From NCBI GenBank assembly GCA_963978895.1, contig OZ022241.1:1415191-1479190 (forward strand): a stretch of DNA of 64,000 bases. The letters are read 5' to 3'. Made by a program: the position numbers and the translations under genes. Below are positions 22,371 through 33,722 of the stretch, one piece after another. The notes under the pieces were generated by a model. That model saw only the letters and a list, made by a program, of their open reading frames with translations. It was not told the origin of the DNA and searched no databases. This DNA is from Erpobdella octoculata. Its lineage: Eukaryota > Annelida > Clitellata > Hirudinida > Erpobdellidae. The first letter of the stretch is position 1. Each line of letters starts with the position of its first letter.

Positions 22371-22517
22371 TTAATGAATTCGCTTTAATTTAACAAAACA
22401 TTTCCTAATCTTATGTTTTTTTAGTACATTCAACATTTTAGTTTCTTGTTCTTTTTGTTCTAGGAGAGCCTTTAAATATTCTATCAACTGCTGTTGCTTT
22501 GAATGTTCTTGTAGAAG
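22371..22517 (-). CDS. Gene 1 last exon
   Basis: Acceptor TTTTTTATTCAG in phase 0. The frame reads LLQEHSKQQQLIEYLKALL, a Lys/Glu-rich stretch, and FVKLKRIH followed by TAA. 48 residues, possibly a short coiled coil. Duplicated at 16883-17029. Confidence 0.7.
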   Translation of the reverse strand, partial: LLQEHSKQQQLIEYLKALLEQKEQETKMLNVLKKHKIRKCFVKLKRIH

Positions 22518-24904
22518 CTGAATAAAAAAGAAAACATGAAATGTTATTTTCCACCATTTATTATTTGATGATCAATACCTCATATCATGAGGATCATATC
22601 TTACACGGCTACCGTTATGTTAATTTTATTTCAGGCCAAAAAAAACCATCAATTTTTGTAATTTCAGAGCAGGCAAGTTTTTTTGCCAAGAACAATGAAG
22701 ATAAATAAACAGATCTATCGAAAAATGTATGAAAATCAAAATAAAACAAAAACAAAACAATACAATATAATGAAATCATGAAATTCAAATTACAACCTCA
22801 CTGGAGCTGAGAGAGGCATTACTTTGTTTCTGTGTTGACCATGTAAATTCTGAACTTTCAGGCTCACACTTCACAACTATTTCAGTTTCGCTTACGAGTG
22901 ATGGGGATAAGTTGTCGATTTGTTTGATTAAATTCTTATTAAAGTCACTGTTTGATTCTGTTTTTGTCACAATGTCATTGTAAATCACTATGTTTTCCTT
23001 GTCAGTGAAGCTTAGTTGAATTGCATTTTTTTTCTCATAAGTTGAGTGTACACCATCAAATTCAGACCATTTATTAGGCTCGACTGGTTCTTTAGTGCCA
23101 TTAAAACTTCTAGATTTTTCTCTAAAAGACCCAATTCCAATAATAGGCCCTTCAAGTTCAGAGTTGAGGGCACATGCTTGATTTTGCCCATGTAACAGTA
23201 TACTCCCTAAGCTTCTTGAATCATTTTCATCCTCATTTTCTTGCTCCATTTTAATCTCTGTGTCCCAATGGCCATCCTGTGCTTTCTGCCTGCTAGAATA
23301 TGTCTGACATAGATCTCCTGTCCACAAAAATGAGTTGTCAAAATTACTTTTATTTTCATCTTCACTATCAGTCCTTGGTCTTTTGATGGCATCTCGTGCA
23401 GATATTTCAGACTCTCTTGAATCATTTTCATAATCTGTAAAGTTCGATGACAAAGACAATGAATAAATGCTTCTTGAATCTGAAGCACAGGAGAACGTCA
23501 TGTTTGAATCGTCGGTTTCAAACTTGTCAAAGTTTGATCTTGGATCCAGGTTGCTAACCCGGTGCAATTCTCCAAGGTAGTGGTGCTGGGTGCTGTTCAT
23601 GTTTGAGGAAAGCTGTTTTATGTGGAAATTGTTTTGATCAATGTTGTTGCTAATGTATGCAAGGACAACAAATTGTTGTTCTAGTGATTGTTGTTCAGAC
23701 TTTTTAAAATCATTTTCTTGCTCCATTTCTACCTCTGTGCCAAAATAGCCATTTTGTTGTTGAACCTGGTGTTGGTGTTGTGGGAGCAATGGCACCAGTT
23801 GGTTCGTTTCCTCAAAATTTTTCTGAACAGTTGGATCAGTCATGATGACATCCGTCCTCTCAGGCCTTCCAATCTGTGATGCTTTGAAGACAAAAAAAAA
23901 TTACAATCATTTAATGTTTTAAAATGTAAAACTTTATTAAACTCAACATTAAAAAATTTCTATACCTCCTCTGGACATGTTATGTGCGAGACATTTCTGG
24001 TACCTGCAGTATTTACAAAAAATCCTCGTATTAGGATTGATGATGCAAGATTTTTTTCTCCAGCAAACATAACGGTGGCTTTCCTGCTGACCTCTTATGA
24101 AGAATTCCTACAATGAGGATAATTGATTTTGCAGATTTGAAATTTAATGTGGGTGTTTCTAAGCTATTAATGCATAAATAATTTCTATTTTTAAAGCAGG
24201 ACTTATTAGCTTTCTTCTAGAAATATTCACTTTGAATATTTTAAATAAAAAATAATGATTATATTAATCTAGCAAGGCTACCTTTTGTTGCCATTGTTTT
24301 TTCGAGGTTTTCTTGTTTTTTTATGATAAAACATAAAATAATAAACCTATTTTTATATAATTTTATTAATTTTCACTTGTCCGGATGTCCGCGGGATGTC
24401 CGAGGACGTTTGAAAGTTCGGAAGATCATTATAAAACTCGCCTACAATAAAGGCTATATAATTTAATTAAACGAAAAAATTAAATAGCAAAAATTAATGA
24501 AAACTAAATTAAGGAAGCATATTGATAATGACTGCAAACAATTTCATCGTCATATTAACTATGAACATCTTTTATTTACTATTAGTGTGGTTACTAAGGA
24601 TTTTTAGAGGTTTGTCTATCGTTTCCTTCTCCGATTGTTTTCCCGATCCCGATCGCTCTGCCGCTCATTCTCGCTCTCCCATTTCCATTCCATTTTTTGC
24701 TTGCTCTCCTACTTGTTTTCCAGTTCCCTCTTGCTCTCCGGCTGATTTTCCTGTTCAGTTCTATCTCCCGGTCCTAGTTGCTTTCCAGTTCCCTCTTGCT
24801 CTTCCGCTCGGTCATTTTCCCGTCCCCTCTATCTCCCGCTTGCGTAACCGTTCCTGCCCACTCTTCAATTTCCGCTTGCTCTCCAGGTCCCGCTCACTCC
24901 CCAG

Positions 24905-33600: not shown

Positions 33601-33722
33601 TTATAAATATATCATAATACAAATCAGATTTCTATACCTTGCAAGAAGCTCACACTTTGGTTCCTCTTGTTAATGACATTCTGTTGTTGCTGCTGAGGTT
33701 GTTGAATTTCTTGTTGCTCCAT
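22371..33722 (-). CDS. Gene 1: five-DBD nuclear-receptor-like gene, complete
   Basis: Thirteen exons, all with GT-AG borders: 33722-33638, 32558-32467, 32341-32200, 30514-30414, 30178-30037, 28777-28671, 28442-28301, 27293-27187, 26935-26794, 25314-25208, 24107-23966, 23881-22797 and 22517-22371. They total 2541 bp, exactly 847 codons with the stop and no internal stop. The protein would have a Gln-rich 28-residue start, five nuclear-receptor DBDs in tandem joined by ~15-20-residue linkers, a ~360-residue polar linker and a 48-residue Lys-rich tail. Ligand-binding domain absent. All module borders are phase 1, so one or several DBDs could be included by splicing. Acceptors of first-finger exons have weak pyrimidine tracts. 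The likely role is DNA-binding transcription regulation in the nucleus (inference). Confidence 0.65.
22797..23881 (-). CDS. Gene 1 long linker exon (no ligand-binding domain)
   Basis: Acceptor TTTTTTTGTCTTCAAAG, phase 1 in; donor AGTGAG|GTTGTA, phase 0 out; 1085 bp. It starts ASQIGRPERTDVIMTDPTVQ, then a Gln/His run, two copies of a motif (NGYFGTEVEMEQENDFKKSE; DGHWDTEIKMEQENEDEN), the basic-acidic IKRPRTDSEDENK and an acidic Ser-rich end. IKME and VKCE fit the SUMO consensus psi-K-x-E. No ligand-binding-domain signature. Close paralogue of 6034-6989, with an extra segment near WSEFDGVHSTYEKK. Confidence 0.65.
23966..25314 (-). CDS. Gene 1 DBD module 5
   Basis: First-finger exon 25314-25208: CVICSDIAAGIRFGAITCKG then CQ. 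Second-finger exon 24107-23966: EFFIRGQQESHRYVCWRKKS, x9 loop, [16 protein letters not shown]. The acceptor is a tandem CAGCAG, so the exon may begin at 25314 or 25317 (one residue difference). The intron between halves holds two Helitron ends around a (TA)n tract. Confidence 0.7.
24580..25158. mobile_element. Two Helitron ends head to head around (TA)n
   Basis: The right part (24985-25158, plus) has the purine array, the CCCGGGCAATGCCGGG hairpin and CTAG. The left part (24600-24910) is pyrimidine-rich (CGCTCTCCCATTTCC-like), the inverse of the same array. Between them lies (TA)n at 24912-24966. This is an inverted pair or a fold-back derivative in the intron of module 5 of gene 1. Confidence 0.55.
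25400..26790. other. Intron between modules 4 and 5 of gene 1
   Basis: Mostly AT-rich. A minus-strand frame at 25695-25511 (SDLPECGLSETTAVESLVSE, then VCSGKILTEKK) looks protein-like and may be a leftover of a mobile element, but I cannot assign it. Nothing else recognised. Confidence 0.3.
26794..27293 (-). CDS. Gene 1 DBD module 4
   Basis: First-finger exon 27293-27187: [20 protein letters not shown] then CQ. Second-finger exon 26935-26794: [20 protein letters not shown], x9 loop, [16 protein letters not shown]. Canonical spacing; an extra Cys in the finger-1 loop (GICYG). Confidence 0.7.
27300..28300. other. Intron between modules 3 and 4 of gene 1
   Basis: AT-rich DNA without a recognised element. 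At 28104-28135 the sequence AACTGTCGATTCATTAATAA plus ACAATGTTTG matches the DNA just upstream of intact first-finger exons, so it is the stump of a lost module. Confidence 0.4.
28301..28777 (-). CDS. Gene 1 DBD module 3
   Basis: First-finger exon 28777-28671: CVICSEVAHGIHYGALVCRS then CQ. Second-finger exon 28442-28301: MFFKRGENENHSYVCKSNKT, x9 loop (TINPSTRSL), [16 protein letters not shown]. Canonical spacing. The P-box is C-R-S-C-Q. Confidence 0.7.
29217..29268 (-). pseudogene. Relic first-finger exon
   Basis: Minus-strand GATCTGATGCTGCCAAAGGA followed by a donor-like GCAAG|GTATCC matches the SDVAKG and donor parts of intact first-finger exons. The cysteine-coding parts are damaged or deleted. 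It lies between modules 2 and 3 of gene 1. Confidence 0.5.
29619..29830. repeat. hAT-type end with 26-bp repeats
   Basis: It begins CAGTGTTGGGGAAGTTAC, a common hAT terminus. Four to five repeats of AAAATGTAACTAGCTACAAG plus TTACTA follow. No matching opposite end is visible, so it is a truncated element in the gene 1 intron. Confidence 0.6.
30037..30514 (-). CDS. Gene 1 DBD module 2
   Basis: First-finger exon 30514-30414 (101 bp, with a slightly different linker, VSPEEKQHQKQK): [20 protein letters not shown] then CQ. Second-finger exon 30178-30037: DFFLRGMKNSHTYVCTRSKT, x9 loop, [16 protein letters not shown]. Canonical spacing. An acidic Asp follows the P-box where Lys/Gly/Val is usual. 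A (TA)n tract begins 25 bp upstream of the acceptor. Confidence 0.7.
30539..30623. repeat. (TA)n microsatellite
   Basis: About 42 TA units directly upstream of the first-finger exon of module 2; it may affect splicing. Confidence 0.95.
30780..31770. other. Intron DNA, no gene
   Basis: Starts just after a small CAGCTAGT Helitron-like end (about 30771). No further supported feature up to the integrase remnant. Confidence 0.35.
31775..31955 (-). pseudogene. Gypsy-type integrase remnant
   Basis: The minus strand reads KSILVVIDYCTKWPDVFATP, then NQEAVTVTSIV, the core segment around the first catalytic Asp of LTR-retroelement integrases. It degenerates soon after. It lies in the gene 1 intron between modules 1 and 2. 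No LTRs were seen, so it is an old fragment. Confidence 0.6.
32200..32558 (-). CDS. Gene 1 DBD module 1
   Basis: First-finger exon 32558-32467 (92 bp): VTTQEEQLK then [20 protein letters not shown] then CR. Second-finger exon 32341-32200: [20 protein letters not shown], x9 loop, [16 protein letters not shown]. Canonical spacing. Most similar to module 1 of gene 2, which suggests the five-module array existed before the gene duplicated. Confidence 0.7.
33638..33722 (-). CDS. Gene 1 first coding exon
   Basis: The frame starts MEQQEIQQPQQQQQNVI and ends KRNQSVSFLQ, with donor TTGCAAG|GTATAG, phase 1, matching the phase-1 acceptors of all first-finger exons. A Gln-rich 28-residue N-terminus. The mirror-image copy on the other arm is 57029-57113. 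Confidence 0.75.

What the first reader, a model, noticed from the sequence alone, without database searches (positions are those of the whole stretch)
22371..33722. A nuclear-receptor-like gene with five tandem DNA-binding domains and no ligand-binding domain
Seen: ten exons forming five C-x2-C-x13-C-x2-C / C-x5-C-x9-C-x2-C double fingers. They are preceded by a Gln-rich first exon and followed by a 1085-bp polar exon and a terminal exon. With GT-AG borders and matching phases they give exactly 847 codons with no stop. Known: receptors have one DBD, and the 2DBD group of flatworms, molluscs and some crustaceans has two. Inference: either a true five-DBD protein, which could bind long composite sites, or a splicing repertoire choosing among DBDs.
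Basis: partly seen in the sequence, partly recalled or inferred. Interest (0 to 1): 0.92.

Follow-up and report, generated by a model that had tools for sequence, protein, structure and literature searches.

The report
Nuclear receptor with five DNA-binding domains
This stretch of animal DNA, likely from a segmented worm, holds the exons of a gene predicted to make a hormone-receptor-like protein with five DNA-binding units in a row and no hormone-binding part; some of the positions that normally read DNA and hardly ever change are here the most variable from unit to unit, so the protein would likely recognise new and long DNA sites.

Summary
Thirteen exons (minus strand, 33722-22371) join with GT-AG borders and matching phases into 846 codons plus stop, with five full zf-C4 domains and no ligand-binding domain. 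All ten domains form one clade (100/99) inside the SECOND DBD of 2DBD-NRB receptors, nearest to annelids; so the array most likely arose by copying a two-exon, phase-1 "linker + DBD2" cassette, with loss of DBD1 and LBD. The DNA-reading P-box, identical in the 15 nearest DBD2s, is unusually variable among the ten modules; none keeps the canonical E..K pair. Of 321 database proteins examined, three (mite, nematode, unnamed) have 3-4 DBDs; my paper searches showed none described. Transcription, splicing and DNA binding are untested. Most likely a ligand-independent multi-DBD transcription factor whose specificity is diversifying; rivals are alternative splicing among modules, a decaying family, or lost DNA binding. 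New variant of a known kind.

The parts
33638..33722 (-). Gene A exon 1: start codon, Gln-rich N-terminus (28 aa), ends in phase 1
   Evidence: in-frame TAA two codons upstream, also in copies C and D
32200..32558 (-). Gene A module 1 (exons 32558-32467 and 32341-32200), P-box CHSCRH
30037..30514 (-). Gene A module 2 (exons 30514-30414 and 30178-30037), P-box CRSCQD
28301..28777 (-). Gene A module 3 (exons 28777-28671 and 28442-28301), P-box CRSCQM
26794..27293 (-). Gene A module 4 (exons 27293-27187 and 26935-26794), P-box CQGCQA
23966..25314 (-). Gene A module 5 (exons 25314-25208 and 24107-23966), P-box CKGCQE; followed by G-box-like QIGRP in the next exon
22797..23881 (-). Gene A polar exon (1085 bp; Ser/Glu/Asn/Gln-rich tail, no Pfam domain); reading on past its donor gives a stop at 22785
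22371..22517 (-). Gene A terminal exon (48 aa + stop), predicted single long helix
   Evidence: mean pLDDT 92, alignment of two sequences
29194..29257 (-). Remnant of a decayed first-finger exon between modules 2 and 3
   Evidence: nhmmer E 8.5e-8
28099..28143 (-). Remnant of a first-finger acceptor region (mostly its intron side) between modules 3 and 4
   Evidence: nhmmer E 1e-7
12868..13220 (-). Gene B module 1 (13220-13123, 13009-12868), P-box CHSCQQ; 6-bp insertion in finger 1 relative to A1
11652..12129 (-). Gene B module 2 (12129-12038, 11793-11652), P-box CASCQV
10004..10525 (-). Gene B module 3 (10525-10419, 10145-10004), P-box CQGCQR
8642..9749 (-). Gene B module 4 (9749-9643, 8780-8642), P-box CGSCKR; 3-bp deletion in finger 2 relative to B3
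7076..8387 (-). Gene B module 5 (8387-8281, 7217-7076), P-box CGSCKL; at the modelled start of its first exon the base pair is not AG, the nearest AG lies 3 nt upstream and keeps the frame
   Evidence: flanking letters
6034..6989 (-). Gene B polar exon (956 bp)
   Evidence: tail with terminal exon has dN 0.17, dS 0.32 to gene A's
5754..5891 (-). Gene B terminal exon
   Evidence: 67% identical to gene A's
57029..57113 (+). Exon 1 of a third copy (C); the last kilobase of its intron 1 (63015-64000) is 92.5% identical to gene A's and ends at the window end, where exon 2 would begin
1874..1949 (-). Exon 1 of a fourth copy (D), which runs off the window
16883..17029 (-). Second, identical copy of gene A's terminal exon in a recent tandem duplication

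Best explanation
Gene A (33722-22371, minus strand) carries five tandem nuclear-receptor DNA-binding domains that by tree descend from the second DBD of a 2DBD-NRB receptor, and it would likely act as a ligand-independent transcription factor whose modules read a long composite DNA site. Shown by sequence: the repeated unit is a two-exon cassette (linker + finger 1, then finger 2) with phase-1 introns on both sides, so copies can be added or lost without breaking the frame; both neighbouring genes have five; no DBD1-like domain and no LBD was found; the P-box has gone from invariant in the 15 nearest DBD2s to unusually variable among the modules. Inferred: cassette duplication by unequal exchange (supported by module remnants and by a 94%-identical unit in gene B); selection that relaxed or favoured change at DNA contacts; transcription and full splicing; DNA binding by several modules at once; regulation through the polar tail and C-terminal helix instead of a ligand.
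For: Exon model and phases; Pfam five zf-C4; no LBD by Pfam or by a profile that hits 118 of 120 relatives, 27 of which built it. Tree of 73 rows: ten modules one clade 100/99, inside DBD2, with P0059, P0001, P0006 (90/82) and P0003, P0024 (97/92); P0006 and P0003 are annelids. Inter-DBD spacing of 27 residues in six of eight linkers (the others 25 and 22), the same as in P0001 (counted by hand on the sequence). Frame kept: 11 of 11 coding indels are multiples of 3 against 7 of 20 noncoding (Fisher P 0.0004); 40 of 40 zinc ligands in each gene. P-box diversity 0.72 against 0.35 elsewhere in the ten modules (permutation P 0.014), against 0.00 and 0.31 in the 15 nearest DBD2s, 0.15 and 0.45 in 44 DBD2s, 0.08 and 0.32 in 73 single DBDs, 0.39 and 0.50 in 44 DBD1s; gene A alone P 0.037-0.040, gene B alone 0.009-0.026. 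E..K pair kept in 0 of 10 window modules, 105 of 137 readable DBDs of two-DBD proteins, 247 of 247 single DBDs.
Against: No near-identical transcript or protein was listed in the two searches with window sequence (best aligned identity 54%). Exon and intron nucleotide divergence between A and B does not differ in three comparisons (0.103 v 0.121; 0.161 v 0.189; tail 0.172 v 0.132), so constraint is modest; pairwise dN/dS among modules ranges from 0.27 to 1.14. Gene B has no exon 1 in the window. Not every P-box site is extreme: of the five recalled contacts two rank 1st and 4th, one 9th-10th, and two 21st-30th of about 60 columns. With all five contacts the excess of amino-acid changes on four independent pairs is not significant (P 0.088; P 0.021 with the three most variable). 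Loss of the canonical P-box may mean loss of DNA binding. Whole-genome context was not available (genome search did not complete).
Confidence: 0.62

Rival explanations
1. A splicing repertoire: each transcript uses one or a few of the modules, so the gene makes several one- or two-DBD factors with different DNA preferences.
For: Every module is a phase 1-1 cassette with a phase-0 intron inside, so any subset of modules, and even finger 1 of one with finger 2 of a later one, stays in frame. Module P-boxes all differ. The alternative end at 22785 also exists in gene B at 6022.
Against: No transcripts. The spacing of adjacent DBDs is 27 residues in six of eight linkers, which would not be needed if modules were used singly. 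Phase symmetry is also what plain tandem duplication gives.
Confidence: 0.25
2. A birth-and-death family on its way out: recent copies with relaxed constraint, many of them not expressed; variable P-boxes are decay.
For: Module remnants; gene B lacks exon 1 and has altered finger spacing in modules 1 and 4; exon and intron divergence alike in three comparisons; dN/dS near or above 1 for some module pairs; many transposon pieces.
Against: Frame kept in both genes against a mean of 6-23 expected stops; 80 of 80 zinc ligands kept; framework dN 0.13 below dS 0.28; change is concentrated in the P-box more than elsewhere.
Confidence: 0.2
3. The modules no longer bind specific DNA; released from that duty they serve as zinc-bound protein- or RNA-binding modules.
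For: Glu of the P-box is lost in 10 of 10 and Lys in 8 of 10 modules.
Against: The last recalled contact residue is Arg or Lys in 10 of 10; the FF core and much of the finger 2 framework are kept. Loss of function predicts drift everywhere, not a P-box peak.
Confidence: 0.2
4. Assembly artefact: haplotypes or repeats joined into a false array.
For: A near-identical duplication exists downstream (15722-17249 = 21210-22737, 99.9%).
Against: Modules differ from one another by dN 0.09-0.32, which I take to be beyond allelic copies; each of the two genes has its own array with different modules.
Confidence: 0.04

Closest known systems
2DBD-NRB group of two-DBD nuclear receptors (PMC10497141, passages)
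   Same: All ten window DBDs fall inside the second-DBD clade with receptors whose P-boxes fit this group; linker of the same kind and length; G-box-like QIGRP after the last module of gene A; the group occurs in annelids.
   Different: Five DBDs instead of two, none of them DBD1-like; no LBD; P-boxes not EGCKK and different in every module.
DBD-only receptors, NR0A (Knirps/ODR-7 type; listed in a table seen in passages of PMC7827873)
   Same: DBD without LBD.
   Different: One DBD there (recalled), five here; no Knirps or ODR-7 sequence was put in the tree, so relation was not tested directly.
Uncharacterised proteins with 3-4 DBDs: P0123 (Dinothrombium, mite, partial), P0205 (Caenorhabditis brenneri), P0002 (unnamed source, 4 DBDs)
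   Same: More than two zf-C4 in tandem and no E..K P-box in 10 of 10 DBDs.
   Different: The P0002 DBDs lie outside the window clade (P0123 and P0205 were not in the tree); P0002 has weak LBD similarity (E 0.0002 whole, 0.0035 best stretch) and aligns with P0205 at 30% identity overall; spacing between DBDs is irregular; nematode 2DBD P-boxes are known to be variable (PMC10497141).
KRAB zinc-finger / PRDM9-type C2H2 arrays (recalled)
   Same: Would work like: tandem fingers on duplicating units, clustered copies, variation concentrated at DNA-reading positions.
   Different: C4 nuclear-receptor fold, not C2H2; no KRAB or SET domain by Pfam; five modules; no target known.

Membership tests
Nuclear receptor superfamily | zf-C4 DBD with eight zinc-binding Cys | tested here: met
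   five stretches, E 9e-100; 80 of 80 ligands in genes A and B
Nuclear receptor superfamily | ligand-binding domain PF00104 (absent in NR0A-type members) | tested here: not met
2DBD-NRB | exactly two DBDs, the first DBD1-like | tested here: not met
   five DBDs, all DBD2-derived
2DBD-NRB | second DBD groups with 2DBD-NRB DBD2 | tested here: met
   the group label B rests on the neighbours' P-boxes and PMC10497141 passages
2DBD-NRB | P-P module LPCKS-EGCKK | tested here: not met
   ten other P-boxes
2DBD-NRB | one LBD | tested here: not met
2DBD-NRB | G-box KXGR(P/H) after DBD2 | tested here: inconclusive
   gene A QIGRP after module 5, gene B changed (consensus from PMC10497141)
NR0A (DBD-only) | DBD without LBD, single DBD | tested here: not met
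   no LBD, but five DBDs
Rapidly evolving zinc-finger arrays (KZFP-like) | excess change at DNA contacts over the framework | tested here: met
   by residue diversity; the codon-level test is mixed
Rapidly evolving zinc-finger arrays (KZFP-like) | C2H2 fingers and a repressor domain | tested here: not met
   zf-C4 only
Any sequence-specific transcription factor | binds DNA and regulates targets | not testable with these tools
   needs protein and DNA assays

The most novel reading that the evidence does not exclude
A nuclear-receptor DBD has been turned into a rapidly evolving, programmable C4-finger array family: clustered genes copy a phase-1 linker+DBD cassette, keep the fold and spacing, and diversify the P-box, the way KRAB or PRDM9 C2H2 arrays diversify their fingers, possibly to track transposons or satellites in this worm's genome.
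Probability: 0.3. Interest if true: 0.93.

Novelty: new variant of a known kind. Interest (0 to 1): 0.8.

Why it matters
The P-box is among the most conserved recognition elements in the single DBDs and DBD2s compared here, and described receptors have one or two DBDs. An array of five, with every P-box different, would show that the fold can be multiplied and retargeted. The parent group is itself a puzzle: in S. mansoni its DBDs bound no AGGTCA repeat or palindrome in gel shifts (PMC1810520, passage). Ten natural modules with diverged P-boxes make the C4 recognition code directly testable.

Tried and rejected
LBD hidden downstream: a profile from 27 relatives' C-termini against 2722 six-frame pieces of 15 residues or more found nothing significant (best E 0.12, on exon 1). 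Missing exon 1 of gene B: an nhmmer model of exon 1 from A, C and D finds only those three at significance (next E 0.63), so B is headless in this window or uses another start. Exon-versus-intron conservation as evidence of constraint: three of four comparisons show no difference; only a sub-stretch of one of them (A1/B1 finger 2, P 0.0007) does, so I do not lean on it. Multi-DBD proteins elsewhere: 3 of 321 listed proteins have three or more by HMM; 120 were listed per search, of 578, 1932 and 653 that passed, so lower-ranked ones were not counted. The P-box tests were designed after I had seen the P-boxes by eye; the P values are descriptive. The DNA-contact identities (E, K, G/A, K, R of CEGCKGFFKR) are recalled; the five-residue P-box definition is from PMC10497141. 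In the comparison and the tree, P0061 (two DBDs far apart) was left out of the two-DBD set. The model of the four-DBD protein P0002 was too poor to use (mean pLDDT 38), so no fold search was run. Paper searches; no paper reporting a nuclear receptor with more than two DBDs was seen in those listings or in the passages read of PMC10497141, PMC8363021, PMC4070562, PMC7827873, PMC1810520, PMC12941274. None was read whole. The single 'four DBDs' hit in PMC10497141 refers to a homodimer.
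Full report
1. Observation. On the minus strand, 13 exons from 33722 to 22371 join through 12 GT-AG introns into 2541 nt, 846 codons plus stop. An in-frame TAA stands two codons before the ATG. Pfam finds zf-C4 five times (E 9.2e-100) and no other family in the whole protein. All five domains have the canonical spacing and all eight zinc-binding cysteines. Introns inside a DBD are in phase 0 and introns between modules in phase 1.

2. Surroundings. The window holds part of a small family. 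Gene B (13220-5754, same strand) has five DBDs, the polar exon and the terminal exon, open from exon 2 to the stop (771 codons with stop). One of its acceptors (module 5, finger 1) lacks AG at the modelled place and would use the AG 3 nt upstream, in frame. It has no exon 1 in the window. First exons of two more copies lie at 57029 (+) and 1949 (-); the last kilobase of copy C's intron 1 is 92.5% identical to gene A's and ends at the window's last bases. Gene A's introns hold a piece of a decayed finger-1 exon (29257-29194) and of a finger-1 acceptor region (28143-28099). In gene B a unit of about 630 bp (finger 2 of one module plus finger 1 of the next) is duplicated at 94% identity (8242-8867 and 9604-10232). 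B1 pairs with A1 both by DNA and by tree. B3 pairs with A4 by DNA over 748 bp (80%), but the protein tree puts B3 with A5, B4 and B5 on an open fork. The two arrays of five were probably reached partly by separate duplications (inference).

3. Origin. A search of about 5.8 billion proteins returned mostly 2DBD receptors at the top, with the four-DBD protein P0002 second. I put all 10 window modules, both DBDs of 25 of 44 two-DBD proteins, 9 of 73 single-DBD proteins and the four DBDs of P0002 in one tree (73 rows, 73 columns, rooted at the midpoint for drawing, many forks unresolved). The ten modules form one clade (100/99) inside the DBD2 clade (97/97). Nearest are P0059, P0001 and P0006 (Paralvinella) (90/82), then P0003 (Lamellibrachia) and P0024 (97/92). 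Paralvinella and Lamellibrachia are annelids. The neighbours' P-boxes fit the P-P module that PMC10497141 assigns to 2DBD-NRB (passages). The reading VRPL.V....E.Q..C that opens the later modules matches the inter-DBD linker of P0001 and P0059, and gene A's last module is followed by QIGRP, like the G-box after DBD2. So the copied unit is most likely linker + DBD2. No DBD1-like domain is among the ten, and no LBD was found. That the organism is an annelid is an inference from the tree alone.

4. Constraint. Between A and B and among close modules, 11 of 11 coding indels are multiples of three against 7 of 20 noncoding ones (Fisher P 0.0004). Random substitution at 5-17% leaves 2 of 12,000 simulated copies of gene A's frame without a stop. 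dN/dS is 0.54 for the tail (0.172/0.32) and about 0.46 for the DBD framework on four independent pairs (0.13/0.28). Against this, exon and intron divergence are alike in three comparisons, gene B has an insertion and a deletion inside fingers, and some module pairs reach dN/dS of 1 or more (up to 1.14). Constraint is therefore real but modest.

5. The P-box. In the 15 nearest DBD2s (all rows of their clade other than the window's) the four non-Cys P-box residues do not vary at all (diversity 0.00, rest 0.31). In the window modules they have diversity 0.72 against 0.35 elsewhere (permutation P 0.014). Other groups: 44 DBD2s 0.15 v 0.45, 73 single DBDs 0.08 v 0.32, 44 DBD1s 0.39 v 0.50, the last not unusual. 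With five recalled DNA contacts the window figures are 0.70 against 0.34 (P 0.008). The result holds in gene A alone (P 0.037-0.040), in gene B alone (0.009-0.026) and in six well-separated modules (0.014-0.015). The second residue after the fourth cysteine takes nine states in ten modules and is the most variable of 69 columns; the residue after the third cysteine ranks fourth; the other contacts rank 10th, 22nd and 30th. Some columns outside the P-box, just after the recognition helix, are as variable. On four independent pairs the three most variable contact codons have dN 0.66 against a framework dS of 0.28, with 12.3 amino-acid and 0.7 silent changes (P 0.021); with all five contacts P is 0.088. 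The tests were framed after seeing the data. None of the ten modules keeps the E..K pair, against 247 of 247 single DBDs and 105 of 137 readable DBDs in two-DBD proteins.

6. Elsewhere. Of 321 proteins listed in three searches, three have three or more DBDs by HMM: a partial mite protein (P0123, three), a Caenorhabditis brenneri protein (P0205, three plus a degenerate one by eye) and P0002 (four, no organism given, 30% identical overall to P0205, so perhaps also a nematode). Their ten readable DBDs also lack the E..K pair, but nematode P-boxes are known to vary (PMC10497141), so this is weak support for a rule. No such protein was seen described in the papers searched.

7. Mechanism. Shown: cassette structure, origin by tree, absence of DBD1 and LBD, P-box diversification, a polar tail kept open in both genes, and a C-terminal exon predicted as one helix (mean pLDDT 92, two sequences). 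Inferred: duplication by unequal exchange between cassettes; a ligand-independent factor; several modules binding one long composite site; the helix as a possible dimer contact; the polar tail as effector. Retention of the last intron would give a form without the helix in both genes (stops at 22785 and 6022). Rivals are given separately. The strongest is a splicing repertoire, since every subset of modules stays in frame.

8. Verdict. [quoted passage not shown] It would work like a multi-finger array (inference).

Noticed in passing
15024-22737: Recent tandem duplication (15722-17249 = 21210-22737 at 99.9%, 15024-15731 = 17248-17955 at 100%) that copies gene A's terminal exon; one unit carries an LTR-like element (599-bp repeats 17952-18550 / 20621-21217 at 99.2%, ORF 18640-20586 with a zinc knuckle), the other looks like the empty site. 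Could be true or a haplotype artefact.
   Followed up: partly
57573-62986: LTR-like element with 373-bp repeats 99.7% alike and an integrase ORF, sitting in intron 1 of copy C.
   Followed up: partly
47111-49275: hAT-type transposase pieces on the minus strand: hAT dimerisation region, and a C17orf113-type zinc finger just under its cut-off.
   Followed up: no
39409-41334: Open frame of 641 codons with no Pfam match, on the plus strand.
   Followed up: no
14894-15445 and 17127-17669: Two copies of an ORF with a repeated motif (the first has a weak STPR match, below cut-off; the second was not scanned), duplicated along with gene A's 3' end.
   Followed up: no
22785 and 6022: In both genes the reading frame ends three residues past the donor of the polar exon, so intron retention gives a form without the C-terminal helix.
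   Followed up: partly
P0205, P0002, P0123: Uncharacterised database proteins with three or four tandem DBDs in a nematode, an unnamed source and a mite.
   Followed up: partly
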